From contig OX359247.1 of assembly GCA_947179485.1 (NCBI GenBank), forward strand, positions 14,298,588 through 14,362,587: 64,000 nt of DNA, written 5' to 3'. Origin of the DNA: Allacma fusca. Its lineage: Eukaryota; Arthropoda; Collembola; Symphypleona; Sminthuridae. A program made the position numbers and the translations under genes. Shown piece by piece: positions 16,439 to 52,097 of the stretch (its first letter is position 1; every line of letters begins with the position of its first letter). The notes below the pieces were generated by a model. That model ran no database searches. It was not told where the DNA came from and saw only the letters and a list, made by a program, of their open reading frames with translations.

Positions 16439-17829
16439 ATGTCGTTCGAGACGGCCAAGCAGAAGTTTTTGGCGATGTCATTTGTGGAGAAAAGAGCTCA
16501 TTATAAAAATGAGGGGTTTGTGGAGTTGGACAAGATTGCTAAGTTTCAGACGGGACCACGAACAATGCAGGAGTTTCGTAAGTTTGTGTGGTAGTATAGT
16601 TGTTGTAATAAATTATTTTAGAGAGGAAGGACATTTGTGTAGTTTTGTTGGAAATTAAATTGTGAATGTTTTTTTTTTTTTTTGCTACAGCCGAAACTTA
16701 TGAGAGGGTGTACCTTTGGAGGGGTGACATTACGAAGCTGGAGATTGATGCAATTGTCAATGCTGCGAACTCTCAGTTGGCTGCTGGAGGAGGAGGTACA
16801 GTACATGAAACGTTATTGTTTTTAAAAATGTGTGTGAATGTTAAATGTTTATGAGTTACTTGAAAGATAAGTAAATAGTAGGTTATTATGAAGAGCTGTG
16901 TTATTATTTTTTAATTGTTTGTTGAATAGTGTGCGGATCAATTTTCAACGCAGCGGGAAGGACAGAGTTGCAAACTGAGTGTAACACTTTGGGCGGTTGT
17001 CAGACAGGAAGTGCAGTCATCACGGGTGGATATCGTCTTCCAGCAAGATGTGAGGTTTACATTTTTGTTTGATGGTAATTATAATGAGTGAGTGAGTGGG
17101 TTTTGGGGGCTTATGTTTTATGTGAGCAGTTTGAGCGGATACTGAAAGTGAAATTATTATTTGAATATCTAGATGTCATACATGCTGTTGGACCCATGGG
17201 GGAGAAACCTCAACAGCTACAAGATACATATAAGTCAATTTTGAAACTTTGCGAGGAGAAAAATATTTCCAGTGTTGTAAGTGACAAGATATGTATATAT
17301 CTGAGTGTGAGAATGTGTTCAAAGAAGAAAATGATATTATTGTCTTGCTTTCGTACGCGTTTAGGCTAATTAGCATATTGATTCTAACTTGTTGTCATTA
17401 AGGATGCTTAATTAATTGCCTGGGGTTGTACTTCCTTGCGACTAATTTGTAAGTATTTTTGGAGGAAGTGTTGCAGGGCTTGGATTGGTGACTGCATCGC
17501 ATTTTAATGAGTTGTTTGTTTGCTCTACTTTCCAGGCTATTCCTTGTATTTCTACTGGTATTTACGGGTACCCTCCGGATCGAGCTGCTTCGGTGGCTGT
17601 TAATACAGTTCTTGAGAACTTACCTGCAAGTGTAAGCCTTTCAGTTGTTTATTTGACTTATGGTAACCTCGTATTATTCATGAAATTTACTTTCTTTGGC
17701 GTACATAGGTTTATTCACACTGAAACTAACACTCTTTCATCCTGTTTATTTTTTTAGGTGGAACGATGCATCTTATGTACCTTCTTGGAGCAAGACTATA
17801 ACTTTTACAAGACATTATTGAGCCAGTGA
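16439..17829 (+). CDS. MACROD1: MACROD-type macrodomain protein, catalytic residues substituted
   Basis: Macrodomains of this class bind ADP-ribose and normally remove mono-ADP-ribose from acidic residues or deacetylate O-acetyl-ADP-ribose. Six exons: 16439-16577, 16691-16795, 16930-17049, 17173-17276, 17536-17631, 17758-17829, for 211 aa with all phases consistent. The amino-terminal helix and domain follow the family: LWRGDIT 55-61, DAIVNAANS 66-74, GGG 79-81, [16 protein letters not shown], then the STGIYGYP phosphate-binding loop. The usual GGGGVDGxIHxAAG segment reads [13 protein letters not shown] here. The Asp equivalent to human MACROD1 D184 is Cys83, and the His equivalent to H188 is Phe87. 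The Asn equivalent to N174 is kept (Asn73). ADP-ribose binding looks intact, but catalysis may be lost or changed. No targeting peptide is evident. Confidence 0.9.
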
Positions 17830-18573: not shown

Positions 18574-20435
18574 ATGAATTACTCCTGGAATATTGGTGCC
18601 ATAATTTATGCATTCATTGTATGCACACTAGCAATATCAAGTAATGCACAGGTGAGCTGAACATCATTAATATAAACCACTTGAACTTTACAACCATGCA
18701 TTTTCACACTGCATTTACAGAGAATGGGCGGGTGCATTCGTGATCATTTCCTACATTAATGTATTTTCTTATTTTTTTTACAGTCGGACGACGAAGACAA
18801 CGAGGAAGCTGAAGTCTTTCGAAATGAAGGTAAAGTACTTAGAAGAAAAAATATTCCGACTAAATTAGATTAAGTATAAAGGATTCACTTCATCTCAACC
18901 ATCTTGTATTTCTGACGACTTATTGCTGTCTCTATTGTAAAGATCATCATTGTAAGATAATTTAATTCGGACTTTTAACCTGTTACCTTGTCAGACGGTA
19001 CATCAAAGCCCGTTCCTTTTTTTCGAATTTACGAAAACAACGACAAAAATAATGGCCTCCCGTGCGTTTTGGTCAGTATGGACGTAGATATCACCATAGA
19101 GCCAAAAAGACAGCAAAATAAGGTTTACACTCTATCATTAAAGCGAATTATTGTAAAAGGAGCTTTGTCCATTTAAATGACAGCAGTAACCAATTTTTAC
19201 ATGTGAATTTATACTAGAAGACAACGGTCAGTTTGCCCATGGCAGCGCATGCAAAGGGCAACTGTGGTCATGGGTTCGACTCGCGAATTACGATTTCCTG
19301 GAGTTCTTTTCATTTGAGCTGGCATTTCCAGAAGGTACTTACACTGTCGATATTGAATTCATTGTCCCTAGATCTATCTCTACATGGAAGATTCCAGGGT
19401 TTCTTATGCACTTATTGGAATGATTTCATGCTCCATTTTATCTTTGGTTAGTCTCGCGTCTCTGATGCCTGGTACGTGGATGTGATCGAATTGAGTTTCA
19501 ATACTTCCGATAAACTACTTGGCGATTTATACAGTAAGAAAATTTTATTTCCCCTCTTTTAATGATTTTAATTTTTACTTTTCAAATTTACTCCGAGGGA
19601 AAAAAAATCCCGAATTACTGTACGTAATATTAATGGGCAAAATAACTGGAAAAAGTTCTCGAAGTAATTTTTGTTGGCTGAAAATTTTAAATGCTCTTTT
19701 TTTTATTGGTAATAGGCGAGGCCCCTTCGAAAGAATTCACACCAAATTCAATCGTTTCCATCAGAACCGACGACCCGTTAACACTCTTCTTAACGCCTAT
19801 CGGACGAAGCTATAGCTGTTCTTACCCAGCAGAAGTTAAAATCTTAGATAGCAAAAAAGTCAGCAGAGTTACCTTCCAGCTGCGAAACGTGCGAATTCAA
19901 CCTTTCGCTTCTATGACCCAACGACAATTCGGAGATGGTAATGATTATATTTTGCACACTGAATAATTATCGCTACATTCATAATTGAGCTATTAAATAT
20001 GAGTTAATATTTGACTTTCATAGAGTAGCTCCTAACAATGTCCAACTTAAATACCTATTATATTATGATTATGAGTTGTAATTAATTTTTAGGGTTTTGT
20101 AATTTTTTATAATGACTATATAAGTAATTGTGTATCATACAGACTAGCAAATTTGCAGATTTAAGCTGCATTTGGTTTTGGGGGAAAGTGTGTTAAGAGT
20201 ATAAGACAGGAACAGTGGAGGAGAGAGAGAGAGAGAGAGAAAGTAAGCGCTAATAAATGTTGACATTTTATTTCTCATAGCATTTCGTTGCCCATCGGAG
20301 GCTGGAAGAAGAGATGACACTGTACCCTTTGCAGTGGGAATGACCCTGGCCGTGGTTGTAGTTGGCACCGTCGGTGGCTATGCTGGTTATCGCTACTTCA
20401 AGATAAAGAAAATTGAATATGACACCATGGAATAA
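18574..20435 (+). CDS. LAMP5: LAMP5/UNC-46-like single LAMP-domain membrane protein
   Basis: LAMP5 (BAD-LAMP) and nematode UNC-46 are sorting factors of endosomal and synaptic-vesicle membranes. Exons: 18574-18651, 18784-18829, 18995-19122, 19218-19334, 19452-19533, 19716-19937, 20281-20435, for 275 aa with phases consistent. A cleavable signal peptide (1 to ~25) is followed by an acidic stretch and one LAMP luminal domain. Four cysteines (65, 100, 185, 228) fit the two LAMP disulfides. KGNCGH around 97-101, GRSYSC at 180-185 and IQPF in the last strand match the LAMP5 pattern more closely than LAMP1/2. A transmembrane helix spans ~240-261, with a short basic tail ending EYDTME. The tyrosine motif YDTM sits one residue from the end, as in LAMP5, rather than the GYxx end of LAMP1. 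The GTG upstream of the ATG at 18574 is not the start, because the signal peptide begins at 18574. Confidence 0.85.
20221..20240. repeat. (GA)10 microsatellite
   Basis: A perfect GA tract in the last intron of the LAMP5-like gene, about 40 bp upstream of the final acceptor. Confidence 0.95.
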
Positions 20436-20559
20436 ATCTGTTCGCACATGTACTCAGTTTACTCATCACAATTTTGAGAGGAGAGGACGGAGAGAAGGAA
20501 CGCAAAGGAATTACCAATCCTATATCAACAATGTCTTCCACTAAAATAGCATTACCAGA

Positions 20560-33536: not shown

Positions 33537-36500
33537 ATGCAACGAAATAACAGCAATCAGAGTTTTAACCGAATGAAACGGAACAGCAGTCGGGTCAGTG
33601 TAAGTACAATTGATTTTGTTAATATGTTTTTCTTTATAGGTTATTTTTGAGTTATGTGTATCTAGTATTGTGTGTACTCTATGTACGTTTTAATTGAGTT
33701 ATTTTGTTTGTGGAAGAGTGGGTGACTTGACTTGATTTAGGGTTTGTTATGCATGACAGGATTTGATTTACGTACGTACGTTCAAGAGGGATTTTGTTGA
33801 GGAAGAGCTAATTAAATTGTGTGATTAGCTGTTACAGGGATATTTAGCGGTTATATTGTGACGGCAATGGAATTTTTATTCATTATCATTCTTTTTGGTT
33901 GGAGTTACAAATGAGTACATTTTGATACAGGAGTCATTTATTATTTCTCAAGGTTTGACTGTTTGTGGGACTTGTGTCCCACCGCACACAGGTCATGATT
34001 GGTCGGTGGAGCTCTGGAAGCATGCCTGTTCGAATATCATATTTCGGGACTGCGCTGTGTCAGTTTTTTGACTTTGGCTTAAGAATTAGGATTTGTTCTT
34101 AGATTGTGGGGTTGATTGTAATTTGTTGTAATTGAAATATTTAATGTATGTATGTAAGGAGAGGGAGCTTTTTTAAGTATGTAATTGTATGTAAGAGTGG
34201 AGGTGTACTATGGAGTAGATGACTTTTGATAACTTGGGGTTGTAATCTGTGGGGTGGAATTTTTGCCTTGTTCTGGGTGCTATGAGCTTAATTTACTTTT
34301 GGGAGTTGGTTCAAATTAATTTATGGGATCAGGAATAATTGCTCGACGTGTGTGTCCACTATAGGTCATGTATTTTACGAAAGGGAAGACTTTTACATAG
34401 CATTGTGGTTAGTATATGAGGTGTTAAGGATCTGAGATGGTGAGGGAATGTAATGACGTGAATCGAAAGTATTTTGACATTTTGGTCTTTCCATTATCAC
34501 TTGTTACACACACCTGTGTCCGTGGTGTAGTTATTTGGAAGAGGCTTTACTCTCAAAACTATGTAGGTACTAAGCTACCCACAACGAAGTGAAAATATTA
34601 CTTATGCAGTTATGTTTCTGATGGGCTAACAAACACCTGCACTCAAGCGTAACCAGTTACATAGGGAAAACTGGTTTTGAAATTGTTCTTTGGAAGGGAT
34701 ACCGCATGTGTGTATTTTCAAAGGCAGTGATGTAGAGCCACAGAGAAATGATTAATCTGACTATTTACCCGTCTAACTTGTCGTCATTTTATAGGTTTAT
34801 AATTGCTAATAGCATGTTCGACAACCTTTCCCCATGTGATAGTTGTCATTGCGTGCATCCACAATAATTTATAAGTTGCTCTAATCTTGTAATCTGATTA
34901 AAGGCAAATCTGCTTACAATTGAATTAGAGATGATGCTGGGTAGTTAGCTGAAAGAGATCCTTGCAAACATTAAATTGAGAAAGCAGTGTGATGTCAATT
35001 GAGCTATTTAGTCTGTTTCAAGTGCAAGTAGCCTAATAATTGAAAAGATTTAGCTGGGAATTCATTTGCTTGAAAAGTATATATGCTCAAACACCGGAAA
35101 AGAATTGAATGATTGTGGTGTAGTGGCAGAAATGAGTTATCTGTACAGCTGGAAAAACTCACAACTGAGTATTATATTCATATGTATAGGTCAATAAATG
35201 ACTAATGAAATAATTTTAATTGTTATAAACTTACTCACTCTTTATCACAGTACAATTATTGTACACAAGCGAATCATCACTAAATCCAAATAAAATTTAA
35301 GTGCATACACGTGCGTTGTTTCCGCGAGTATACATACTACATGATGTTCTTGTTAATTGAGAGTGTTAGGAAGATTAGAATCTTGTACACGTTTACGTTC
35401 AATTTTTATTCTGGTTCTGGTATGATGTCATGCTCTTTGCGCCCTTGTTTGTTTAGTACATTTGCGTTTTATATAAATTACTTTATGAAGTACGCTTTGT
35501 TGGAAGCGGCTACTCTGTCTGATCTTTGATCATCTGCTTACCATTTGACCGACTGTGTAGCTCACTCAGAGAGAGCCGCAGTCTCGTTATAGTTTTAATC
35601 AGTGAAATTGTAAGCGTCTGTGTGACTCCTTGTACGTAAGTATACATATGGGGAAGGCGTGATTCTGTTGATGAGAGAGATTCATGCTATTTTACAATGT
35701 CATGACTATTGGTAGTAAAAGTAGTGATGATCTCCGCTGAGTAGGCTGATATTCAGGACAGAGTACATAATTTTATTTTGGGTACTCAAAAGTATTCCCT
35801 GTAATTTCTGGGTAGTGCTAATAAATAGTAATATACTGGCGCTAATGGCAGAGTTAGTGTACATTATTAAATTAGAGATGTAGTCGTGTTGGAACAATAC
35901 ATTAGGTTGATGTAGTATTATTACCCTTTGCGAATGTGAACATAATCAGTAAAGCAAACTTTTTGATGATTTTTTTTAATATTTGAAGAACGACTCAACG
36001 GGTGATGGCCCGAATGCGGGTGGAGATGACCAGCAGGAGAAGATGCCGCTAAATGACGAGTACATGATGGATGATGATATAGATGACGATGAATTACTAT
36101 ATGATATGATGGAAACCGGTGTTCCGGCACCACCGGATGGTGGCTGGGGTTGGGTTATTGTGTTTGCATCCTTCATGTGTAATTTAATTGTCGATGGAAT
36201 CGCTTATTCCTTTGGTGTTTTCTTGGCCACTTTTGCGGAAAGTTTTGGAGAGGAAAAGGGAAATGTAGCCTGGGTCGGCAGTTTGCTGTCTGGAGTATAT
36301 TTGTTAGTTGGTGAGTCGGTTTTATTTATGTATTGATGGATTGTAAAAATTTTGAAGTGCAAATATAAACCGATTTGATTTAGAAAATATGTGTGTAGAA
36401 AGTATTTGGATTGGAATTTTTCGGATGGAAATTCTAAATCGCTTTTGATAATTAAATAATTCTGCTTTTATAGGTCCCGTCGTTTCGGCACTAACGAATA

Positions 36501-39500
36501 AATTTGGTTGTCGGATTATTTGCATTGCTGGATCAATTGTGGCGTGTATTGGTTTCGCACTATCATCATTGTCTGGAGACCTCGCTACGATGATTGTAAC
36601 TTATGGAATAATTGGAGGTAAATGGTTTAAATTATAGTGCAGCTGATGATACTAGTATGCATCAGCACTGTTGGGAAATAATGCGTCTGTGGAACCCTGG
36701 TATAATTAGTTTTATGATAGTGAATGATTATTTAATTCAGGAATTGGATTTGGAATGATTTACCTTCCCGCCGTAGTATGCGTCAGTTATTATTTTGAAT
36801 CGAAACGAGCTCTTGCCACGGGTCTTGCAGTTTGTGGATCTGGCGTCGGCACATTTTTGTTTGCCCCGATCTCCTCCTATCTACTCAGCGTTACAACCTG
36901 GCAAAATGCCAACTTAATATTCGCTGGTCTCTGCTTTTGTTGTGGTGTAAGTTTATTTCAGAAGGTTGCACTTCATGAGTAATTTCCTTGTGACAAAGGA
37001 GGCTGTTAGAAGTTATAATAATTTATTTGACAGATTTTCGGTATGCTGATGCGGCCACTAGAAATAACTAGAATGGAGGATGATGGAGATTATGATAATG
37101 AAGAAGACATTGAAAATGGACCAGAATCTAATCAAGTTCATATTCCGAGACGAGGAAAGAACTTGCTTCAAAGGATGGCTGAAGAAAAGAGGAATTACTT
37201 GGAGAAAGGCTCTATTGCTGGTGGGTTCCTTATGTTTTGACGACTTTAGGATTGTACGGAGGGTGAAGAATCATTATTGATTCTCGGCTATATCTTACGG
37301 TTGATGCCAAAACCATTTTATGAAAACCATTTGTTACATTGAAATTTTTATGAGAACCATTATTTACATTGGATGAATCTAAACTGCCGCTAACTTATGT
37401 CGTTGTTTTGATGTAGGCTCATCGTATTTTATGGTTCAGCTTCCTGATGGAACCATGGAAAGGAGAATGAAACTACCATTGAATGTGGATCCGGGTGTGC
37501 ACTCATCCTTCAATCTAGATCAGCTTGTACCTGGCACGCCCATTACACCAGTACCAACCTTGGCTACGCTACCGACCATTACTGAAGCTGATCAGAAATC
37601 CACGACTGTCACCGATAGTTTAAACGCGAACGTTCCCACGAGTGTAAAAATTGATGACCCAATTATTGAGGAGGAACTAATTGTAAGCATTCCCGAACCT
37701 ATTGCTGAGGAAGAGGAGGAAGCCAATACAAGCACCAAGTCTGACGATGAAGATGTTACTAATTCAAAGTAGGAAATCACAACTTCAGTTTTTCCTTTTG
37801 CAGTCAATACGTAATTTTATGAATTCAACGCGACGAACAAGATTTATTTGTTTTGTACATTTCAGCTCGTCTCGACCTGTGCCGATTAACTCCCAGAGAA
37901 GGAACAGTGATGTTTCAAACTCAAATGGAACAACGCCTTCCAGTTCATTCAGAGCCAATGAACTGTCACTGTCAAAATCTCCTACGAAACCAATTCCAGT
38001 TCGGGTCGGGTCTTTAGTTGGTTCAGGATCAGGTCGTGGAATGACTAGGAATGGATCAGCTCCTCAGTTCAACGCTGGAAGAAGCATCCCTAAAAATGGA
38101 AGTGTTCCTTTCTTCGATCGTATGCCCAGGAGACAAAGTTACAAGGCAGTGCCATTGGGGTCCAGTGTTAAAGAAAATCAGTTGGAACCTCCTACTGCTG
38201 CGACCAAAAGAGTTTTAAGGTGATTTACGAATGCTGCGATTGCTTATTTATTTCACACATCCAGTTAAGAACTTATTATCAATTAAGATTTTTATATTTG
38301 TAGCAAATCCAACCTATCTGAATCCAACAGACGTGGTTCGTCGAACTTCAAAAGCTCAATGACATCATTTGTTAGTTCGAAAATGAATAATCTTGGTGAG
38401 ATAACTTATTTAAAAACTACATAACATATTCTTTTAATACTTTTTAATGTCTACACATGAACGACCGTTTTTCCCAAAATTTTTATTATTCATAATATAA
38501 TACCTCATAGCAAGGGAAAATTGATTAAATCCTCAAAGTCACGGTCAAAGGTAACATAGCTGAAAATGGGTACAATAATAAACGTATTGTACTGTATAGC
38601 AGCTTTCTTATTATAGACAATTAAATTTCATTATTATAAGATGCAACATTAACATTTTATTATTGTTAATATTTGGATATTTTATATACCTACATTTGAG
38701 CAAAGGGTAGTTAGTTTTAAATAGTCAAAGGTAATGAAAGGGTTACTTGTTCATTGCGTAAATAGGATTTTTTAGTTTAATCCAGGTTTGGCCGAAACAC
38801 ACGCTGAATGAGCTAGTTTCCAAGATGTCCCTCCATCTATTTTTCTATTAACTATTAAAAACTAATTTTCCTCAAATTTAACGGGTAATGGGATCACCTG
38901 TTTTATCACATGTTTCCCCTTTTCCTTTTAAAATCAAATCGTCTTTTATAAATCACCGAACCCAATCTATCAAATATCATGGTGTTCAAATATGTAATGG
39001 GCTTACGTCGTGCAGCATCAGATAGTTTGAATCGGTATGGAACCCTCTCGAATCTATTACCAGTCTCAAAGGGTTAAGAACTTACCACCTAATTTTCCAC
39101 CGTTTGGAATTGCGAAGTTTTTCGTTACTCTTGTAAAATGCCAAATTAGTTTCGGTTTTTCTAGTTCTGTGATATCTTATTATTAATTAATTTTTTGCTA
39201 CTATAGGTGTTCCACAGGAAGATGACTATACCAGCTTGTGGTCAAAGGGCGAACTGTCCGAAGGGTTGGTATTCAGTTCATCCCGAAAGGACTCTGAACA
39301 ATATAACCCACCTCCTCGCATCATACGTCCACTGTCAAGAAAAGATATTTTCTTCACTGGTTCAATTGTTCACCTTCCAGAATTTCAGTCGCAGAAAAGT
39401 ATCTCTTCGTACCGTCAATCAATTTTAAATCTCCCAAAGGCTGCCGGCAGCATGGCAGGTTCAGCTATGGTTGGTCCGGGGGAGAAAGGATTTGATGGGG

Positions 39501-40569
39501 CAGACGGGGTAGGTCCACCTGGAAGCACCTGTTGTTCTTGCTTGTCGAGTGGAGCATTCAAAGCAGCACTAGGCCAGTTGATGGATTTCGGGCTGCTCAA
39601 AAATCCAGTGTTTCTCTTTGTGGCGGTCAGCAATATATTTGGAATGTTGGGATTCTACGTTCCTTTTGTATACTTAATTGACTCCGCCCAGAATAAGGTG
39701 GTTCTTGTTTTAATTTTAAAACAATTTCTTTGTAATTATTTTATTTGTAACTTGAAGGCTTGTATTTAATTTGTATTTGCACTCATAAATATTTATATAA
39801 TGATTCATTTTGAACTGCAGGGTATTGATAAAGATCAGGCGGCATATTTACTATCTATTATTGGAATCACGAATACAGTTGGTCGTGTTCTCTCTGGTGT
39901 GATTTCGGATTTACCTCAAGTCAGCGCACTTCTCATGAACAATTTATGCTTGCTTCTATCTGGAATTTGTATCGCACTTGTCCCTTTCTGTGCATCATTC
40001 AACGCATACGTAGCAATCGCGGTTTTCTTCGGACTTTTCGTTTCAGGCTACGTTTCCCTTACAAGTATTATGCTTGTGGAATTACTTGGATTAGAGAACC
40101 TTACCAACGCTTTCGGGCTTCTTATTCTATTTCGTGGCGCAGCCTCAATTGTAGGATCGCCTCTTGCTGGTATGTTATATTATTTTCTTCAAATGTACAA
40201 CGCCAATTATTGTTGTGATAAACTGTGTTCTTGTTTTCAATTTCGTCGTAAATTAAAGGTTGATATGTGTTTACACTGGAATAATATATAACATTTTTAG
40301 GCGCTGTGCTAACCGCTGTTGGTAACTACGAGGTCCCTTTCTTTCTTGCCGGAGGGTTTCTTATTATTTCTTCAATCATCAGCTTTATGGTACCATTTGT
40401 AACACGATGTGCACCCCCGAAGCCGGTCCTTGAACCAAGAACCTTCGTAGGCACTGCTCTGGAAGATATCCCAGAGGATGAAGATGAAAGCTGCCGTGAT
40501 TCTGCAGAGCAATCAGTAAATGAAGAAAATGAGAAAAATGTTGTTGACAATGTTGAATCCTGCTTATAA
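33537..40569 (+). CDS. SLC16 monocarboxylate transporter, copy 1, long cytoplasmic loop
   Basis: A 12-helix major facilitator of the SLC16 family, whose members move lactate, ketone bodies or related solutes. Exons: 33537-33599, 35989-36310, 36474-36617, 36741-36946, 37034-37220, 37417-37768, 37866-38219, 38304-38395, 39207-39697, 39821-40169, 40301-40569, for 942 aa with phases consistent. After an acidic amino terminus comes the TM1 signature DGGWGW (71-76). The second MCT signature is FESKRALATG (195-204). A cytoplasmic loop of roughly 445 residues separates TM6 from TM7, against some tens to ~200 in vertebrate MCTs. The loop includes QLPDGTMERR, a Pro/Thr-rich block, Ser/Arg-rich segments and RKDIFFTGS before TM7. 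The carboxyl tail is acidic. Donor AA|GTAGGA after 37768 is weak but keeps frame; retaining that intron would end the protein at the TAG there. It is the most diverged of the three copies, with its own intron positions. Confidence 0.92.
33600..35988 (+). other. Intron 1 of first SLC16 gene
   Basis: A 2.4 kb intron between the short MQRNNS... exon (donor AGT|GTAAGT) and the exon carrying TM1. No embedded gene was recognised. The open frame at 35311-35529 lacks family features. Confidence 0.6.
38396..39206 (+). other. Intron within loop region of first SLC16 gene
   Basis: An 811 bp intron from CTT G|GTGAGA to CTATAG|GTGTT. No coding content was seen. Confidence 0.7.
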
Positions 40570-40717
40570 AAAACAATTATTATAAAGTCTTCACTGCTAC
40601 TCTTGTCCATTTGTTTTATTTTGCCTATGTATATGGAATATACATGAGAAAAAAAGGATTTGGAAAAATTTACTCTGTGATACTGCTATGAATGGAAAAA
40701 ATGTAAACGCAGAAAAT

Positions 40718-40723
40718 AATAAA
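40718..40723 (+). terminator. Polyadenylation signal of first SLC16 gene
   Basis: An AATAAA hexamer lies about 150 bp past the stop. Confidence 0.45.
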
Positions 40724-43700
40724 AATCATTGTGTCATTTGGTAAATACCTCTTATGTACTTACAGGTTAGGTCTCTGTAGGTAAGTTACCTCCAATTTTT
40801 CCAGTCGATAATCCTCCACAATATACACAATGTTTGAAAGTATGTATGTAATAACTGCATATATTGCAATGGAAATATGATTAATTGTTACACTGCTAAG
40901 CGATAAAAAGATTTTTCAATATTTCCAAAATAATGAATAGAATACAGAAGTGAAACGAATGCAATGCACTCATTACTACAAAGCAACTTATATATATATA
41001 TAAGTATATATACAGATAATTATACACATATAAAAACCACCAGATACTTCTACCCAGTACTTATACATGTGTGGTACTTATGTAATCCTAGTGAACAATA
41101 CTCTTGTATTTTATTTATTTAGTATATTACTTAGTGCATTTGAATTCAGTCCTTGCAACTTGTCCCCCGTGTCACTTTTACTGTAATTATTACACAACAA
41201 CCAACAGCTAAACATGTGCTTGCCGGTATACTAATCAATTTTTTAAAACCGTTTAGACAAATCTTTTAATGTGTATGTATTTGTATTGTTTAGTGAAAAT
41301 ATGTAACATGCAACATTGTTTTATTTATTTATCGTTTTCATTTTTTAGAAAACAGACAGAAAATCTAAATAAAAAGACATTACCTGCTTTCTCAATTTAT
41401 GCATTTTTCGATCGTGTTCCCTGTGTATGTAGGTAGACTTGCGAAGCTTCACTCATGTATGTTTGTTTGTTTGTATGTATCTGATAAGAATAACTCCTGA
41501 CACTGCTGCTCGTGCAGTATACGTGAGTTTTCATAATTTCATGTGCACTACTGCTTATGTACATATGTACATCCTGTTTAGTTATGAAGGCTTTTCAAAA
41601 CAAAAATGAATAAAACAGTTTTGATGGAACCTTGATACCACACACAAACTTTAAATACTTCCACCTAATAATGCAACGTTTTATACACTCCATGGCCGAA
41701 TTGGATGATATCAATTAATTTTAAGAGTCAATCCAAGCATGTTAGATACGTAACTTTTAAGTAAACAAAGGAATCGTACCAACAGAATCAGTACATATGA
41801 CAAACTACTTGCACTGTAGCATTACTACTAACTACTACTCACCGAAGTTCTTCTCTTTCTTGATGGGAAGCTGGGCGAGCGTGTCAATAAGTGTATTTTT
41901 CTGATATTCTCTTTCCCAACTATTCTGAACTGAAAGTGTTTTCAAGATCAAGGAAACTCCGTAATGCCTGTTGAATTTTATAAATAACTTTCTGGGTTTT
42001 ATTTGTAAACAGCAAACTTTATTCAACTTTTGTACGCCTCTCACAATCCGTGTGCCTGAAACTTAACACTTTATTTTGCGGAAATCTCTCCAATAATAAT
42101 TATTTCGCACTAATATTTGTGCAACGAGCTGCAACCATTTCTAAGGTTCGCTTGTCCCCACAGTAATTTGCACATTTAATTCAAACGGTGTTTACGGCTG
42201 AATTTGGGGGTCCACCTCCTTTAAAAAATTAAAAAGTAATATCATAGCATACATACAATAATTGTCTTGATCAGTGCAATAGTGTAGAAGTGATAAAATT
42301 TGAAAATTGTTTCCACATCAGTACTGGAACAGCAATGCAGAATTCTACAAAAATGAAAAGTAACAGTAACTGCACTTAAGAAGCTATATGTACATACATA
42401 TGTTCAGTGAGCAATTCAATACAAATTCCATTTGAAATTTTTGCAGTTCACCTGTGCTTAATTAATAGGGAAAAACTTCTCTGCAAACGCATTGCATTTA
42501 CATTTATACTTATGATCACAGCCACGAGAAAGTACGATAGTTGCGCTACTGGGAATTCTACCAGTTTTTCTCCAAACATATCAGAGAGGTGAGTCACATG
42601 TAAGAATTGAGATTTAGCTTAAATCCATCACCGACAAGTTAATCGTCGGATTTATGGCGAAGTTAAATATATCTATAACTGGGTTCAACATGTCTTGCAG
42701 TGATGGTATGTATACCCATAGGTTACTCATAAGTAGTGAGAAATCTTATCTCAATGGTTAAACCATACTCTTTTTGTGTTTATAGCCAGATTATATGACC
42801 ATCAATATTTTCCTTATCCCCAGACTTTATGAAACCAAAGAACAGAGATTTTTGACCTGCAGTAATCCCTTGATTCAAGTCGAGAAATAATTCTCAGGTA
42901 TGAATCCAGCAATACATTACCACCAGTATGCGACACATTAATGAGACAATATTGTTTTCTAGTCGGTCAAAAGTAATCAACTTGGGGAGATAACTTCATG
43001 GTAAACTTGGGAATTCATTTCATTGGGAATTTCTATCCCCAATGACTGAGAACACTTTCATTCACTTGTCCTCACTTGCAGTTCCTATTATCGATTATAT
43101 AAATATTATTTTATTGGAATTAATTTTACTGGTAACCTTACAGTTCCCTTCGCTAGTACTAAAATAATGATGCAAGATTAAAATTATGTACTAACATGCT
43201 TCGTTGAGCCTTTATAAAGAGTGTGTATGGTAATACCGTATTAAAACAATTTCATGAAATGCCACATTGTGATGAGAATTCAATAACTCTTGGTATTAAT
43301 AATCATATTCGTATTATCGTCTCGTTCAAGTTCTTTTGTATTCTAGTCTAGCTTATGATTAAATCTGATATGACTCAAACAGGTAAAGCGAAATCTGTTG
43401 TATATATAAATATTGTAAAAATAAAAAATATAGCATTTTGACCAATCAATGATAAATACTACTCTTGAATGCATTTGCTTCTTCTATTTCTATGTCGGTG
43501 AATAATTGACAGAATTGATTAGCAATTGTACAATCAATAACCTCCACTCATATCTATCATAATTGAGTAGATCCAAGAGACAATTAAAGTTCAAAACGAA
43601 TAATGACCACTTAAACATCAATACTACGGCATTGAAATAACTCATTATTATTTATTGTTGTCGCGTGCTTGCAACACTAGCCCCCTTTTATGCCAGACAG

Positions 43701-43853
43701 TTTTGACCTCATGGGCTACTTTAAAGACACGTTAAACCTTGTTCTCACCGGATTGCAAAAGGCGTTTAGAAGTGCCTCATTCTAACTTGTTTTTTTTTCA
43801 ATTTTTTGTGGGAAAGATAACAAAATCTGAGATTCTGTGAAATCCATGACAAG
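40724..43853. other. Intergenic region between SLC16 copies 1 and 2
   Basis: This 3.1 kb AT-rich stretch has no recognised coding exon and no transposon with defined ends. It should contain the promoter and 5' UTR of copy 2. Confidence 0.5.
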
Positions 43854-46800
43854 ATGAGTAGCGAAATCCCAGAGAAAACAGAACAATTGAAAGAGGTGGA
43901 GCCTTTTAAGAGAAAGAAAAGTTTGCCTACGGACGTGGAAAAAGGAGGTTCGAGGAAAGCAAGTTTCTTCATTGGGGATGACAAGGACGCTCCAGTCAAG
44001 GTACATTACAAACTCTTAAAGCCTCGGGTAACAGGTGTTTTCAACCATGTGCTTTTCCCGTTAAATCCACGTGTTTCTTTCAATTAAATTTTTAAAGTTT
44101 TTCAAATATGTTCAATTTCGAATTTCTAAACCTCCTTTATACCTTAACTGAAAAAAGTTACCTTATTCAAATTATATTATAGAACTTTAGCTTACGTTTT
44201 TAATATACGAATCCCAATTAGATTTTGCTTACAAATGTAATGATTCTTCAAGTGTAAGCCAGTACAAAGTATAAAGGTACAAGCAATTATAATTTCCAAT
44301 TACGTACGTAGATACAGGTGACAGGGTTGTTAGAGAGCTTTGTTGATCTATAGAATCTGTATGTCCAGGTTATACTTTACTACAGACACGTGCTAATTTG
44401 CTGGTAGGTATGTTCATATGCGGGGGTTAGATAACTTAACTTTTATTATAGGGCACATTTTTACCTAGATTTAATGTGATTGATCATTACAATGAAACAT
44501 GACAACTTGACATGTGTAAACAGAAAAAAAGGAATACTTATTATGCACAGAATTCATCATGGGTGTAATTTTAAAAATCTCATTTCTTATGTGACACCTA
44601 TTTACAGATAGTAGGCCCAGATGATGAAGAAATTCACCCGGATGAAATCATCGTTGCTCCAGATGGTGGATGGGGTTGGGTAGTAGCATTTGCATCTTTC
44701 TTGTCAAATGTAGTAGTGGACGGAATCATTTTTTCTTTTGGACTGATGTCTGAGCCTATAAGATTAAGTTTTGAGGAGGCTGGAATACAAAATGTCACTG
44801 TGTCAAATATTGCATGGATTAGTAGCTTGCTTAATGGCTTTTACTTATTGGGAGGTGAGAAAAAGTGAAGGTTATATGAACTACGATAATTATGGGCTTC
44901 AGGTTCCAATCTCTGAAACTGAAGCACGGAACGGTCCTTCGTTGGAAAAATAAAATAGACATACATATGAATGTATCTATGTATGAGATCTGAGAATAAA
45001 CTGACGCTCTGGTTTTTTTCTATTTGTCTTTTAGGACCATTTGTGTCCGCCCTTGCCAATAAGTTTGGGTTTCGAGTGGTTGCAATACTAGGATCAGTGG
45101 TCGGATGTTTGGGATTTATGGCTGCCTATATTATGTGCCGTGATACTCCCAATTTATATAGTTTGCTTATATTCTATGGAATCATCGGGGGCATCGGATT
45201 CAATCTTCTCTATGTACCCTCTGTCATTGCTGTTGGGTTTTATTTTGAGAAGTATCGAGCTTTGGCTACTGGAATTGCCATTTGTGGATCTGGTGTAGGA
45301 ACTTTTATTTTTGCACCTTTAACTTATTACCTTGTCAGCAATTACGGATGGAGAGTCACTATTACAGTTCATGCTGCCCTGGTTTTGAGTTGCAGTATTT
45401 GTGGGGCTATGTACCGCCCGGTGAAGGCATTGAAAGAGAGAAAGTCTACGACAGGTAATTTCAGTTTGTTTATACTGAAGTGTATTTTCTCATGTAACAC
45501 ATGCTATTTTTATCTGTAGCAGCGATAGCGAATGACCCAGATCAGGAGAAAAAAAAGATAACACCATTCCAGACACCAGAGGGAACACCATTATTGATGA
45601 GGATAAAGCGTGCTCGCGAGATGGAGAAATGGGATTCAATTAATTCTGTGGAAAATGACACACCCGACGCCCTAACATCGCAAAACAGGAAAGCCTCTAC
45701 CCATTCCCTCAATAACCCTCTCCCAATACATAAACAAGCCAAACGAATGTCTGTACCGTCATCCATGGTAATGATCGGTGACTTGCCCCTTGTAAGAACA
45801 AATACGCAGTCATCCGTCCGGGGCAAAGGAGTAATAGGAGATCTTGTGGAGATTCAGGAGGAAAATGAAATTAATGAAGGTTATTTTAAAGGCATATATT
45901 GATGGATTGTATTTAATTTTGCAAATACCAAAGTCTAAAATTTGACATTACGTTAATGAACAGATGATCCACTGTACGAGCACTCTAACAAGGAAAATAC
46001 CAATCAAATGAACCAGTCAGGACCTATATTACAGACCAAAATAGGAAATTCAACCTACCTCGTGGATGAAATGACTCGTTCGCGAATACTTCGAGTCAGC
46101 TCTAAAAATATTATAAACAAGGCACTCTACAGAGACGATATCTTCTACAGTGGAAGTATGAGAAGGATCCCTGAATATGCCGAGACTGTAAGCGGAAATT
46201 GTAAATTGGTGTGAAAATATTATATGTAGGTAAAATAGGTCACAGATGAGATATTTTTATTAGGTCGATAAAGGACACTTCTCCAGTGTTGAGTGGTCTG
46301 CTATTGTTGCCAACAAACCACAAGAACCTTCATCAGAATCGTTAAAACCAGCTACACCGGATGGGAAAAAGAGGAAACGTTGTTGCACTTTAAGCGTTGT
46401 TAAAAAAATGCTGGACTTTAGCTTGCTGGCCAGCCCGACATTTGTACTGCTTGCTGTGGCGGGTGCGTTTACCATGGCAGGGTTCTTCGTTCCATTTATC
46501 TTCCTTAAAGGTTGGTAAAGCTTTGATGAAATAACAGTCGTCTTAAGAGAAACTTCGGGAGGCAGAAAATACTTTCACTTGTATAACTATCACTCAAAGA
46601 CATTATTTAAACCTTATTTGGAAACAATTTCATATAAAAATTATTGTTAATTCTTTCAGGGATTTCTATGCAGGCTGGAGTTGAAGAGTCTGATGCTCCG
46701 ATGTTAATATCCGTTATTGGAATCGCCAACACTGTCGGCCGAGTATTCTGTAAGTGCTAATAAGATAAGCTGAATAACTCTTTCTTATAACAGATTGTTG

Positions 46801-47497
46801 AAAATAATTTAAGGAATTAAAATATTGTGGTAAATACAGCGGTGCTTATTTCGTTTCGCAGGTGGTTGGCTGGCGGACAGGCCACAAGTGAAAGCAGTTG
46901 TGATGAATAATGCAGCACTGACGATAGGTGGAATCTCCACTATCCTGGTTCCATTCCTGACTAACTATTGGCTATTTATTGGATACTCTTCCGTTTTTGG
47001 CCTAGCCATGGGTAATCCATAAAATCAATACATAACATATAAGACTATTTGTAGCTATTTACACTAAAATGTTTATATTAATTTGTTTTTATTTTAAACA
47101 GCCTGCTACGTTAGTCTTCGTTCAATTCTGTTGGTGGATCTTCTAGGATTAAATAAACTTACAAATGCTTTTGGCCTTTTGTGTTTATTTCAAGGAGCAG
47201 CAGCAATGTTTGGAGCACCTTTAGCAGGTACTGGATTGTTTTGAAATGATTTGTCGGTACAAATTGATTTTGTAATTAAATTGTTTTTGCAGTTACTAAT
47301 GCTAATTAGTCAAATAATCGCATAGTTTCTATAAGTAGATTTTTAATTTATTTCCAGGGTTCCTGTTTGATTTTACTGGAAATTTTGATATGACATTTTA
47401 CGTAGCTGGTGGCCTTATACTAATGTCAGGTGTGATGGTTTATCCCATAGAATATGTAAATCGCTGGGAATTGAGTAGAAATTTATCAGAAAAATAA
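43854..47497 (+). CDS. SLC16 monocarboxylate transporter, copy 2
   Basis: Exons: 43854-44000, 44608-44854, 45035-45454, 45520-45879, 45964-46187, 46264-46510, 46660-46749, 46862-47011, 47102-47227, 47358-47497, for 716 aa with all phases consistent. The amino terminus is basic and acidic, followed by DGGWGW at 68-73. TM5 signature is [12 protein letters not shown] loop of about 250 residues contains [15 protein letters not shown]-type phosphosite candidates and [17 protein letters not shown] just before TM7. TM8 region reads GRVFCGWLADRP, and [16 protein letters not shown] matches the conserved TM10 block. It shares nine intron positions with copy 3, and exons 7-9 are identical in length (90, 150, 126), so the two arose by tandem duplication. 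Likely a plasma-membrane solute carrier; the substrate cannot be told from sequence. Confidence 0.93.
44001..44607 (+). other. Intron 1 of second SLC16 gene
   Basis: A 607 bp intron from GTC AAG|GTACAT to TTACAG|ATAGTA. Nothing further was seen in it. Confidence 0.7.
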
Positions 47498-47661
47498 AAG
47501 AACTATTTTTTTTACCGCTCAGTTTGCTTATTTACAACATAATCTGAATTACATGTACCTAGTTACAACGTTTAGGTTAGGGCAAGAATCAAGGGCCACC
47601 TTTCTCCGTTATTTTACGTCAAAATTTGGACTAGGACATCAAAATTTCAATTAACCTTGCA

Positions 47662-47667
47662 AATAAA
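47662..47667 (+). terminator. Polyadenylation signal of second SLC16 gene
   Basis: An AATAAA hexamer lies 165 bp after the stop. Confidence 0.45.
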
Positions 47668-48878
47668 ATGCTTTCATATAAACACGGCTGCCTTAGTCAC
47701 TATTTTTTAAATTTTGAACCCTAGCCAATAATTTTTTTGTAAATTTTCAATTAAGTTAAAAAATACATCAAATGCCAAATAACCCTGAGGAGGCAGTACA
47801 TGGTATCGATAGAGTCCCTTTTGTGGCCAAAAAAGTGGAAAAGATACCTTTGTTTAGACACCCAAAGTTTTTGCTACGATTTCGAAATTTTACTCCTGAT
47901 GATTATTTGATGTAGATCAAAATTAACAAAGCTTTTCAATCAGAAGCAGTGGTGTCTGTTCATCTACATGGACGATATCCGCCGAACCAATGACAACAGG
48001 CAATTCAAATGTTTTGCAGGGGCGGATAAGTAAAAGTAAAATGCATAATGTTATCAAAGCAGACCGTCTCATCCGTCTAACCTCAGAAAATTAAATGAAA
48101 CTATGTATAAACACATTCCACTGCACACAAAATCATTTGCGACCAGTACTACGTGTTAAGTCACTAATGGGCGAAACAGCACAACAGCATGGGTGTACAT
48201 GTACATAGCATGAGCTATAAGTAAAGAGTATTAAAATGTATGTGAAACTCATTTCGCATTAATACGTTTATGTAAACTCATCAACGTATGAACTCAACCT
48301 TTTTGCACGGTTGGTATTAATTATAATTTTAATTCATTCCCACGCGTGTGGTTGTATTCAGTATGCCAAAACTTAAATTTTAAAAACGTTTACATTGAAT
48401 TTAAAACGAGTTTGTACGAGCTGTACGTTCAGTGCACGAAAAAAGTATTCACACCCTTTACCTCTCTGTTACGTGATTTCACGTAACTTAGTTTAGGTAG
48501 CCATAGAGAAACAAAAATTGCTAGAGTTGTAGATAATTAAGTGGGGAATCGATGGGTTGCCATGATTAAAGAGTAAGACTCAACCCACCAAAACTAGAGC
48601 CCCCGCTACCCAATTATATCAATCATCTTCCACTCTTTTTCATGACGCGTATTGTCATTTGAGTATAGTGCAAATCTCTCAATTTTTAATAATTAAGGTA
48701 TTTAATATTTTAATTCCTGGAATCAAACATTTGGGCAGGCAAAAGTGTCTGCTCTTTGCAGACTTGCCCATTTCGACCCACTTGGTTCTCGTCCGTGCAG
48801 AGCAACTGGTTCGATGATGTGGGAATGGGAACAAGCTTATCGTTTACCGATTGAAGATAGTAATGGAGTCTGTTTTTA
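47668..48878. other. Intergenic, no gene recognised
   Basis: No coding exon or defined repeat was recognised. The sequence leads into a block of mobile-element remnants. Confidence 0.4.
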
Positions 48879-49292
48879 AGGTGGCGTCCGCCCCCTAGTA
48901 AAATAGCCTTGTCCGTACGTGTGTGCGTCCCTCCACACGATTACGCAAAAACTACTGAACCGATTTCAATGAAATTTTTTATGGACATTACTTGTATCAA
49001 AAGTAAGGATGAGTTGGTTGAAATCGGAAGGGTAGTTTTTTAGATTTTTTTTTTGAAATGTTGGACTTTATGTCAAACGACTGTTATATCTAAAATTACT
49101 GAATCGATTTCAATGAAACTTTGTGTGAATATTGCTTATGTAAATAGTAATGGCTACTGTATATGTGGTTGAAATCGGCCCGATAGTTTTTTCGAAAAAA
49201 AATCTGAAAATTCGAAAAAAAAACTAAAATTTATCCTAGTTTGACATCGGTAGCTGACGCCACCCTACGCGAAGCCTCAAATTATCGCGTAG
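48879..49292 (+). mobile_element. Non-autonomous repeat element, copy A, two internal units
   Basis: It begins AGGTGGCGTC and ends with the inverse GACGCCACC at 49256-49264, then an 8 bp perfect stem (CTACGCGA 49265-49272 with TCGCGTAG 49285-49292). Between them are CCCCCTAGTAAAATAGCC and two copies of a ~158 bp unit built on CTGAAYCGATTTCAATGAAA and GGTTGAAATCGG. A reverse-oriented copy with three units lies at 57889-58460. No protein is encoded. The short inverted ends suggest a MITE; the terminal hairpin could also suit a Helitron-like end. Confidence 0.75.
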
Positions 49293-49570
49293 CGATGATT
49301 TTTTTGAGAACGGCCACCCTTGATGGTCACTATTCCAGAAAACACTTTGATTTATGACCTGAGATGCATAATGTAGAGAAAAAAATCTCCCAAAAAATAT
49401 TTTCCCCAAAAACCGAATAGGAAGGCAAATAAACCGAGAAAGCCCAAAATCTTCATAATCTCAAATTTACTATCTACTACAGTGATGATTTTTTCCCGGG
49501 CCCTAAAGTGAAAAATTCGGATTTTTGTAAAAAATTACATGGGAAATTTTAAAATTTCGCCAATTTGTTA

Positions 49571-49680
49571 GACTGCCGGCACTCCCAAGTAAACGCTTTA
49601 TTTTGCTGGAAAATGTGGGGATTAATAAAATCTTCATTTTAAAATTTTAAAAAAGCGTTTATTTGGGGGTGTCGGCAGTC
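49571..49680. mobile_element. 110 bp hairpin MITE
   Basis: The first 28 bp, starting GACTGCCGGCACTCCC, and the last 28 bp are inverted repeats matching at about 25 positions. The spacer is ~54 bp and AT-rich. The element could fold into one long hairpin. A target duplication is not evident. Confidence 0.75.
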
Positions 49681-50039
49681 AAATCGAGTTACATCCGAAA
49701 CGGGTAATTTATATACGTATCTAGTTAAGGCTCAGTGCACATATTACTACCACGCATGGATTATATGCGTACATGTAAGTACATGCAGCCAGCATGCAAG
49801 CATTGCTTGCTTGATGTTGTAGACGAGGAGAGGTGGTTCCTGGGAACGTAATACACGGGCAGCGCCTTCGCTGTAAGCCAAAAGCCCTATCCGCTCCATT
49901 CCTTGGGACTGTGTCGCAGCTCAACTAGTCCCAAATTATTTTTTTAATAATTTTGGATTGGTTGGCTGTAGACTAATTATATTTGGCCTCAATATTATCC
50001 ACAGTATTTAAAATGTGTGTATGTACATTATATGTAGGG

Positions 50040-50140
50040 ATTGTCGATTTGAAAATGCCATGGCATGGCATTTTGGGCATTTTCAACTTTGGGCAAATAC
50101 GTAGATTTTGGGCATATTTGGCATTATGGGCATATTTAAC
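50040..50140. repeat. TTTGGGCAT short-repeat cluster
   Basis: Several copies of GGGCATTTT, GGGCATATTT and TTTGGGCA in direct orientation, with a palindromic TGCCATGGCATGGCA at the start. Possibly the subterminal region of a degraded DNA transposon. Confidence 0.5.
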
Positions 50141-50343
50141 TCAAATTTTCCGGCCGATTACCTTTTTAAGACGTTATAGGTCGCTGCCAGACATGTGTAA
50201 CCTCGTGTAGGATTCCCATAAGAGACGTCCCGGGATGACCCTGTGACGTCACAACAGTGTCCCTTCAGGCTATATTTCTGAAATACTTGTGGCTTTACTG
50301 TATAACACAAATATCCGGCGGGTACTGTAACCGGGTAATACAA

Positions 50344-50470
50344 TTCGATTAAAACTTGAACTTGTTTAAAACCTGAACAGTGATTAAAACTTAAACTTCG
50401 ATTCGTTGAAATTTGACTCTCAAACCTGAATTTCTATTCAAACCCGAATTTCGATGTAAATTTTAGTTTA
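50344..50470. repeat. Degenerate ~18 bp tandem repeat tract
   Basis: About six units vary around GATTAAAACTTGAACTTC and AAACCTGAATTTCTATTC with spacing of 17-22 bp. Weaker relatives continue to about 50600. Confidence 0.55.
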
Positions 50471-50952
50471 GATGAATATGGGAACTTAAATTCAAATTTG
50501 AATTAAGTTCCAAAGTTGAACTTAAATTTGCATGAAAAGTGAAAGTTGATACTAACTTCGCTATAAATTCAAACCTGAATATATATACAAACTTCAGTAC
50601 ATCAGTTTAATTGGTCACTACTTACATATGGTTGTGCCGGTATGTTGTAATTGGCAATCATAACCACAATAACAAAATGCTGCCCAGAAAACACTACAAT
50701 ATTACAAATCCAGACGTGGTAAAAGCAACAAACACAAACAAAACGTACGACATTACAGCATATACCAAACGCAATATACTATTAGATGGTGATGAATCGA
50801 GAAAATGCCATTCTCGGCCATTATAGTCACGGCACAGCTTTCCAACTTAAACTAATAGCCTAACTGGAACGTTCCAAACGACGGGTTAGGTTTCAAACAT
50901 GGCAGCTGGAAATGGGTTGTATTACGAAGTGCCAATTTTAAACTAGGTCACA

Positions 50953-51146
50953 TATCGTAGTTTGGAAAGTTGCATTTACGTCCCACGAATCCCCACCATT
51001 CCACCAAAGGGCCATCATTTCCCCCGGCCCTTAGGTTTGTTCACTGCGAGTTGGGTCACTTACCGAACTTCGGGTCACACATCGGAGTTCGCGGTATACT
51101 TATCGTAGTTCGGAAAGTTCAACTTTTGAGCCAATTATCGTAGTTG
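50953..51146. repeat. Scattered TATCGTAGTT motif repeats
   Basis: TATCGTAGTTTGGAAAGTT at 50953-50971 recurs with one change at 51101-51119, and its first 11 bases recur at 51136-51146. Function is unknown. Confidence 0.5.
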
Positions 51147-52097
51147 TACCCTACCAGTACCCCAACATGTTCTAAAAGAAGATGCAAGGTGGAAATTACC
51201 TCTATAAAATATTATCTTGGTATTTAACATTTATGTATTTATCTTGGTAGACATCAAACATGCGAACAGCCAGTAGAAATATTCAATATTTCACCACCAG
51301 TGACGATATGGATACACAGAAAAAAAACAATTGAAACATTGAGAAAACGACTAAAACAATTTTTGCAAAGGCTAAAGGGATGACAAAAATCATAGAAACA
51401 ATATCTATTATTTTGAAGTTACACAAATATTCATCAAGCTTTTCTTGTTAAAGCAAGTAGATGGTTTCTGTTAATAATGCTCAAAATTCTGGTAGTGATA
51501 TAATACAGACAATAAATTGTTACGTAGATATTCAACTAACAAAGTCTTCAGAAATAATTCATAGAATAAAGACACTCATATTATATTTATTGAATGTTCT
51601 ACCCTCTGGTGTTGAAATATTTAATTAAAAGTGACCAATCATTTGGTAATTAGGTTAGTACACTCCTCATCCAATTATCCATTCCAGCTAGAATATTTCT
51701 GCGACCCTAAAAGCGGATTTATTTTCTCAGAATAAATTACCCGTCTGAAATACCAATTTAAATCAATGAATTTAATAAAGTTTTACTTAGATTAAAACGT
51801 GTTCAAATTATCAACAGACTGGCCAATTGTCGATTTCCAAATTTGACTCCCGGATGCAGACTTACACCATAAGCTATTGGACGCAACAAATAGACGAAGC
51901 TGAAATTAGCCGGAAAGAAATCTTAACAGAGTAATGAACCTGCTGCAAAACAATTACATGCAATTACGTGATTTCATAAAAGTTCATGGAATAACATGAT
52001 AACCAAGATGGAGTAACTTTGAACCCGACGAAAGGACGCAATACTGAAACCAGACCAACAGGACATCATTTTTGTACGACAGATAAAATAAATCGAT
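51147..52097. other. Upstream region of third SLC16 gene
   Basis: No gene was recognised. It presumably carries the promoter and 5' UTR of the gene starting at 52098. Confidence 0.4.

What the first reader, a model, noticed from the sequence alone, without database searches (positions are those of the whole stretch)
16930..17049. MACROD-like macrodomain with catalytic Asp and His replaced by Cys and Phe
Seen: the loop usually reading GVDGxIHxAAG reads [11 protein letters not shown], with Cys83 and Phe87. Known: in human MACROD1, N174, D184 and H188 are the residues tied to ADP-ribose hydrolysis, and two of the three are changed here while the Asn and phosphate-binding loops are kept. Inference: the protein may be an ADP-ribose reader, or may use Cys83 in an altered reaction. 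The substitution sits in a well-formed exon with clean borders, and no alternative acceptor restores Asp.
Basis: partly seen in the sequence, partly recalled or inferred. Interest (0 to 1): 0.75.

Follow-up and report, generated by a model that had tools for sequence, protein, structure and literature searches.

The report
Springtail MacroD gene with cysteine-type loop
A springtail enzyme gene of the human MACROD1/MACROD2 family has swapped its textbook Asp/His catalytic pair for the cysteine-type loop known from alphaviruses and some bacteria, so it is probably a differently built ADP-ribose eraser and not a dead one.

Summary
A six-exon gene (16439-17829, +) encodes a 211-aa MacroD protein; exon 3 gives [13 protein letters not shown], with Cys83 and Phe87 at the MACROD1 D184 and H188 positions and N73 (N174) kept. 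The genome matches the springtail Allacma fusca, chromosome 3. The change does not look like random decay. Cys with Phe and one extra residue in the following helix is a common bacterial MacroD form: 102 of 119 Cys-type matches carry Phe (15 His, 2 Tyr), and Phe goes with the longer spacing in 100 of 101 measurable rows. Alphaviruses and rubella virus also have Cys at the Asp position, and the rubella domain is an active de-MARylase. With the loop removed the protein still groups with eukaryotic MACRODs (82/76, below the tool's support mark), and grouping with the bacterial class is weakly rejected (AU p 0.039). So the loop probably arose independently in an animal. I found no Asp/His MACROD in the genome; the second MACROD-like gene has Gly/His and neither macroD signature. 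Best reading: a Cys-type mono-ADP-ribosylhydrolase. Activity and spread among arthropods are untested.

The parts
16439..16577 (+). exon 1, residues 1-46 plus one base; N-terminal part alignable with MACROD1 upstream of the macrodomain
   Evidence: phmmer alignment to 2x47 starts at residue 6
16691..16795 (+). exon 2; RGDIT, NAAN and start of the catalytic loop
16768..16770 (+). Asn73 (AAC), position of MACROD1 N174; start of macroD signature Nx(6)GGV ([10 protein letters not shown])
16930..17049 (+). exon 3 with the Cys/Phe catalytic loop ([18 protein letters not shown])
16932..16934 (+). Cys83 (TGC), position of MACROD1 D184
16944..16946 (+). Phe87 (TTC), position of MACROD1 H188
16959..16964 (+). 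Arg92-Thr93 in place of the single Pro of AAGP; one residue more than MACROD1/2, as in the bacterial Cys/Phe form
   Evidence: alignment; spacing table
17173..17276 (+). exon 4 (VIHAVGP...)
17536..17631 (+). exon 5; diphosphate-binding loop STGIYGYP
17557..17568 (+). macroD signature 2, GIYG (residues 164-167)
17758..17829 (+). exon 6 with stop; FLEQD (197-201) aligns with FLEVD of MACROD2, taken as hMacroD2 Phe224/Asp228
   Evidence: residue roles from PMC7729036

Best explanation
The gene is an intact animal MACROD1/2-family gene of the springtail Allacma fusca whose catalytic loop has switched from the classic Asp...His dyad to the Cys...Phe form. Shown: the gene model, the substitutions, both macroD signatures, family placement without the loop (moderate support), and a matching bacterial loop form. 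Inferred: it still binds ADP-ribose in the MACROD cleft and removes mono-ADP-ribose (or the acetyl group of O-acetyl-ADP-ribose) by the substrate-assisted water mechanism of the MacroD class. In that reading Asn73 and the GGG backbone hold the distal ribose, and Cys83 takes over the Asp contact to it and may trap an intermediate covalently, as proposed for Getah virus. Phe87 would fill the space of the histidine, which is not needed once the dyad partner is gone, and the one-residue-longer helix start would accommodate Phe. I found no other MACROD with the dyad in this genome, so it may be the animal's main MacroD-type eraser.
For: Signatures Nx(6)GGV at 73 and GIYG at 164 present, which PMC10878246 gives as the macroD active-site signatures. 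Of 119 Cys-type genome contigs matches, +4 is Phe 102, His 15, Tyr 2. Spacing 11 goes with Phe in 100 of 101 measurable rows (one is 10) and spacing 10 with His in 15 of 15; the window is Phe/11, MACROD1 His/10. In 70 tree rows with both traits, 32 aromatic/11 and 38 His/10, none mixed (the one mixed row, L033, was not in that sample). Rubella macrodomain with this Cys is active; C49A alters its kinetics. Getah Cys34-ADPr adduct. OiMacroD D40A keeps activity. Animal pocket residues kept. The genome has PARP-domain exons, but no dyad MACROD was found.
Against: No activity has been measured for this protein, and I saw none for the bacterial Cys/Phe form. Cys is not tied to Phe: 15 of 119 Cys-type bacterial matches keep His, and over 78 tree rows the independent pairs for Phe with Cys are too few to test (2 on starred branches). 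Rubella C49A lowered the extent of de-MARylation by only 11% at 1 uM, so Cys need not be a true nucleophile; the Getah authors could not exclude an abortive adduct. The other changes near the site (AAGP lost, GGGG to AGGG) could also mark relaxed constraint. With 5 independent pairs on the best tree, 2 on starred branches, the Phe/spacing coupling cannot reach significance by sign test. No branch holding the window reaches the tool's support mark once the loop is left out.
Confidence: 0.58

Rival explanations
1. A pseudo-enzyme: the dyad was lost and the protein only reads (binds) ADP-ribose, as proposed for other inactive macrodomains.
For: Two of three residues tied to catalysis are changed; recurrent loss of macrodomain activity is documented in macroPARPs and alphaviruses (PMC10221186, passages). 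The second springtail MACROD-like gene has plainly degenerate signatures.
Against: Both macroD signatures, Asn73 and the diphosphate loop are intact; the loop matches an ordered bacterial form, not a random state; Asp is not strictly required.
Confidence: 0.28
2. Horizontal gain: the gene, or the loop segment, came from a bacterial Cys/Phe macrodomain (springtails are recalled to hold many acquired genes).
For: VCGxIFxAAG and the xLQ helix start resemble bacterial loops (Gln 67 of 107, Leu 87 of 107 at those columns).
Against: Whole protein: best hits MACROD2 169 and MACROD1 166 bits; best bacterial 156 (a Cys/His row), best Cys/Phe 155. With the loop masked 136 and 130 against 114 (Cys/His) and 107 (Cys/Phe). 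Five introns, four shared in position and phase with the second MACROD-like gene (read by eye). N-terminal MACROD1 similarity. Forced clade with bacterial Cys/Phe rows rejected, AU p 0.0389, only weakly.
Confidence: 0.08
3. Neither a one-off convergence nor decay but an old arthropod or invertebrate MACROD form that is simply absent from the human-centred literature; ordinary once orthologues are seen. (This can be true together with the best explanation.)
For: Only one hexapod genome could be searched; the collections I could search hold prokaryotes, viruses and plasmids. PMC4245714 reports MacroD kept in honey bee and lost in flies, with no residue data in the passages seen.
Against: PMC7729036 states that the dyad is conserved among Eukarya, though its arthropod sampling was not visible to me: 'arthropod' occurs 0 times in its main text.
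Confidence: 0.35
4. Artefact: sequencing error, wrong splice border or pseudogene.
For: None found; no RNA data were available.
Against: Assembly QV 58.7; four base differences in five codons if the ancestor had GAC and CAC; no alternative in-frame acceptor; intact spliced ORF.
Confidence: 0.02

Closest known systems
Human MACROD2 / MACROD1 (4iqy, 2x47)
   Same: Whole domain, N-terminal stretch (MACROD1), NAAN, diphosphate loop and the Phe224/Asp228 pair; 56% and 49% identity in alignment A1
   Different: Asp/His dyad replaced by Cys/Phe; AAGP replaced by AAGRT with one extra residue; LLGGGG to LAAGGG
Bacterial Cys/Phe MacroD form (for example L063, L057, L039 Bifidobacterium)
   Same: GGGVCGxIFxAAG and the longer helix start
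   Different: Rest of the protein is further from the window than MACROD1/2. 61 of 102 Phe-type ORFs, stop to stop, are 300 aa or longer; in the 8 proteins scanned, Macro was the only Pfam family over its cut-off
Alphavirus / rubivirus macrodomains (Getah Cys34, rubella Cys49)
   Same: Cys at the MACROD1 Asp184 position
   Different: Viral chains score about 60 bits or less against 168.6 for MACROD2; proximal-ribose residues differ (PMC7729036)
GDAP2 macrodomain (4uml)
   Same: A MacroD-type clade member cited as a binding module (PMC6397177, passage)
   Different: GDAP2 has its own gene in this genome (L172, PDB best hit 4uml 1.6e-11); the window gene matches MACROD2 at 168.6 against 81.9 bits for 4uml

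Membership tests
MacroD-type macrodomains (PMC10878246 signatures) | Nx(6)GG[V/L/I] in the catalytic loop | tested here: met
   [10 protein letters not shown] at residue 73
MacroD-type macrodomains (PMC10878246 signatures) | G[V/I/A][Y/F]G in the diphosphate loop | tested here: met
   GIYG at residue 164
MACROD1/2 group (eukaryotic) | Closest relatives and tree position with the loop left out | tested here: met
   Best BLAST and PDB hits are MACROD2 and MACROD1. Window + MACROD1/2 + the 5fsu and 5fsz chains + L174 are one side of a branch at 82/76; window + MACROD1/2 + L174 at 92/42. Neither reaches the tool's mark, so support is moderate
MACROD1/2 classic enzymes | Catalytic dyad Asp and His (Dx3H) | tested here: not met
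   Cys83 and Phe87
Bacterial Cys/Phe loop form | Cys at Asp position, Phe at +4, spacing 11 to the next Cys | tested here: met
   the class was drawn up here matches
Bacterial Cys/Phe loop form | Common descent with those proteins | tested here: not met
   AU p 0.0389 against it with the loop left out; a weak rejection
Zn-dependent macrodomains | Cx(4)HxC zinc loop replacing the Gly loop (PMC11490716) | tested here: not met
   loop is [18 protein letters not shown] kept
De-MARylase activity | Hydrolysis of mono-ADP-ribose | not testable with these tools
   needs protein

The most novel reading that the evidence does not exclude
An animal MACROD has independently evolved the cysteine-centred catalytic loop known from togaviruses and bacteria (Cys, Phe and longer helix together), works through Cys83 and serves as the species' only MacroD-type eraser, perhaps with a shifted substrate range. 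This would contradict the published view that the Asp/His dyad is conserved among Eukarya.
Probability: 0.3. Interest if true: 0.65.

Novelty: new variant of a known kind. Interest (0 to 1): 0.5.

Why it matters
How MacroD enzymes cut is still argued: neither the Asp/His dyad nor the viral cysteine has a settled role in the papers seen. A cellular animal protein that carries the cysteine loop on an otherwise human-like MACROD scaffold is a natural exchange experiment: it allows the cysteine mechanism to be tested, and inhibitors compared, without working on a virus. If active, it also shows that 'catalytic residues missing' is not a safe sign of an inactive macrodomain.

Tried and rejected
Artefact and alternative splicing: rejected. 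Conventional MACROD elsewhere in the genome: searched by Pfam family, by the window protein and by human MACROD2; only three macro genes turned up (window, L174, L172). The search is exon by exon, so a weakly matching gene could be missed. Horizontal transfer of the whole gene: disfavoured. Zinc macrodomain: loop motif absent. Relatives in IMG/VR with the window protein alone: 4 stretches matched a pattern, none encodes a relative; that search reaches close relatives only. Plasmid records: 125 with a match, all under 60% identity, and residues not read. A solved structure of the bacterial Cys/Phe form: phmmer with L063 gave 69 sequences at 1e-10; the five alignments printed read Asp/His in four and Ala/His in one; the other 64 were not seen as alignments. 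PARG in the genome: not completed. Structure prediction was not run, because the tool asks for proteins read letter for letter from the DNA and this one is spliced. Pfam on an upstream 56-aa candidate and four window ORFs gave nothing over cut-off. Rfam and tRNA scans of the window gave nothing. A first attempt at the tree test stopped on a script error and was repeated; the support of the six-row eukaryotic group was read separately, since the group table leaves 45 rows uncounted. The published microbiome figure is 241 of 1706 (PMC7729036).

Full report
What is there. The finding's exon is one of six in an intact gene on the + strand (16439-17829). The spliced product is 211 aa, all five introns are GT-AG, and the reading frame is open to a TGA at 17827-17829. 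Pfam finds one Macro domain, E 2e-38. phmmer against the PDB puts MACROD2 first (4iqy, 168.6 bits) and MACROD1 third (2x47, 160.9 bits), the latter aligned from residue 6 and so including the stretch before the macrodomain. In the alignment, N73 lies under MACROD1 N174, Cys83 under D184 and Phe87 under H188.

It is not a splice or base artefact as far as can be tested. Reading back from exon 3 in frame there is one codon and then a TGA at 16923, so no upstream acceptor can supply an Asp. Six-frame scans of the whole window for a MACROD-type loop returned only this exon and one strict-pattern chance hit at 34005. The own genome has 392,743,791 bases in 91 contigs, with C1 of 81,893,619 and C10 of 66,084,411. 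These match the published Allacma fusca assembly: 392.8 Mb in 95 scaffolds, chromosome 1 81.9 Mb, chromosome 3 66.08 Mb, QV 58.7 (PMC10427803, abstract and passages). The species is inferred from these lengths and is not given by a tool.

What the loop is. In all 119 the residue four after the Cys was tabulated: Phe 102, His 15, Tyr 2. The spacing from that residue to the next Cys is 11 in 100 of the 102 Phe rows; one is 10 and one is cut off. It is 10 in 15 of 15 His rows; of the 2 Tyr rows one is 11 and one has no Cys there. The window has Phe and 11; MACROD1 and 5fsu have His and 10. MACROD2 scores 5 by the script only because it has an extra Cys; its aligned Cys is at 10. Among 12 viral-collection matches with Cys, +4 is Phe in 6, His 2, Tyr 2, Thr 1 and cut off 1; the Thr row and the cut-off row do not look like macrodomains. 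Among 40 with Asp, +4 is His in 30. So Phe and the longer helix start go together almost without exception, nearly always on a Cys; Cys itself also occurs with His. The springtail protein has Cys, Phe and the longer start, a combination that random decay is unlikely to give.

Literature on the cysteine. In Getah virus, Cys34 is isosteric with MacroD1 Asp184 and was seen covalently bound to ADP-ribose; the authors leave open whether the adduct is a true intermediate (PMC7468284, passages). Rubella virus has Cys49 there and is an active de-MARylase; N39A cuts activity five-fold, while C49A lowers the extent by 11% and gives a lag (PMC10878246, passages and section 7). PMC7729036 (passages) says the classic dyad is conserved among Eukarya, Iridoviridae and some bacteria, that Togaviridae have an absolutely conserved Cys in its place, and that 241 of 1706 microbiome sequences carry the Cys. 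In OiMacroD, D40A retains 331 of 2412 M-1 s-1 (PMC5413906, passages). My searches for springtail with macrodomain (0 papers), for insect/hemiptera terms (41 papers, 12 listed) and for catalytic cysteine with arthropod or invertebrate terms (351 papers, 12 listed) showed, in the listings seen, no report of a Cys-type animal MACROD; this is a limited open-access library.

Where the gene comes from. BLAST against the collected ORFs: MACROD2 169, MACROD1 166, best bacterial 156 (a Cys/His row), best Cys/Phe 155 bits. With residues 74-100 masked: 136, 130, 114 and 107. A tree of 84 rows (30 sampled of 99 Cys/Phe, all 16 Cys/His, 26 Asp/His, 6 others, 4 eukaryotic chains, L174 and the window; shorter rows and odd labels were left out) puts the window with the eukaryotic rows at 97 with the loop and 82 without it (SH-aLRT). 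A careful tree of 80 rows (four rows removed: three with long branches and one identical copy of one of them), loop removed, keeps the six eukaryotic rows as one side of a branch at 82/76 and window + MACROD1 + MACROD2 + L174 at 92/42. Neither reaches the tool's mark. Forcing the window into the bacterial Cys/Phe group costs 70.8 log units, AU p 0.0389; but the Cys/Phe rows alone as one clade also cost 31.2, p 0.072, so part of the cost is theirs. The rejection is weak and the supports are moderate, but all point the same way: the Cys/Phe loop was most likely acquired inside the animal MACROD line. In 70 rows with both traits, aromatic and spacing 11 agree without exception (32 and 38), but only five independent pairs exist on the best tree, two on starred branches, too few for a sign test; for Phe with Cys (78 rows) the starred pairs are two and mixed.

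The rest of the genome. A Pfam Macro search found three loci. L174, 5.4 Mb away on the same chromosome, is a second MACROD-like gene with an open spliced frame; the 5' end was not traced. It reads NATN...KGSVGSAIHNEAGP and ATGACG, that is Gly at the Asp position, His kept, and neither macroD signature. Its best PDB hit is MACROD2, 151.5 bits. Read by eye, four of the window gene's five introns have the same position and phase there, and L174 has one more. L172 on chromosome 1 is GDAP2-like (4uml, 1.6e-11). Searches with the window protein and with human MACROD2 added no further gene. PARP-domain and ADP-ribosylglycohydrolase-domain exons are present; PARG did not complete. So the window gene is the only MACROD found here that keeps both signatures, which favours a working enzyme over a reader.

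Most likely mechanism. Shown: scaffold by sequence, signatures, loop type. Inferred: ADP-ribose sits as in MACROD2, Asn73 and the glycine backbone hold the distal ribose, and a substrate-bound water attacks. Cys83 makes the contact that Asp makes in MACROD1 and may trap the ribose; Phe87 replaces the His that served only the dyad. I put 0.58 on an active Cys-type hydrolase and 0.28 on a binder. Whether this is an oddity of one springtail or common in hexapods cannot be said: no other arthropod sequence was available. That is the main reason for a middling score.

Noticed in passing
L174 (G000:C10:19678763-19681876, minus strand): Second MACROD-like gene of the same genome with an open spliced frame, Gly at the Asp position, His kept, NATN instead of NAAN and ATGACG instead of STGVFG; probably a true binder or degenerate paralogue.
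   Followed up: partly
L172 (G000:C1:23081331-23084543): GDAP2-like macrodomain exons (PDB best hit 4uml).
   Followed up: partly
whole window, G000:C10:14298588-14362587: If contig C10 runs in the published orientation, the window lies inside the heterozygous inversion reported on Allacma fusca chromosome 3 (about 5-45 Mb), as would L174 at 19.68 Mb.
   Followed up: no
18577-20436 (+): LAMP-like gene just downstream by hand-joined exons: Lamp2-like luminal domain 27.8 bits against a cut-off of 27.2; signal peptide and transmembrane tail judged by eye.
   Followed up: partly
35980-53302 (+): Monocarboxylate-transporter-like (by recall) exons at 35980, 39770, 44971 and 52862; MFS_1 hits in the last three, none in the first; possibly a tandem cluster.
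   Followed up: no
60448-62290 (-): Two ORFs of what looks like a Tc5/Tigger-type transposon; Pfam Transp_Tc5_C in one (60448-60900), no family in the other.
   Followed up: no
G000: Nine ADP-ribosylglycohydrolase-domain matches at four or more loci, two of them about 10 kb apart on C1 (51.5 Mb), some frames with stops, which suggests expansion of ARH-type erasers in this springtail.
   Followed up: no
L057, L063, L039, L031, L121 and others: 61 of 102 bacterial Phe-type ORFs, read stop to stop and some cut by locus ends, are 300 aa or longer, with the macrodomain near the N-terminus in the seven of that length scanned; the C-terminal half reached no Pfam cut-off (one weak HTH_19 hit in L057); function unknown.
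   Followed up: partly
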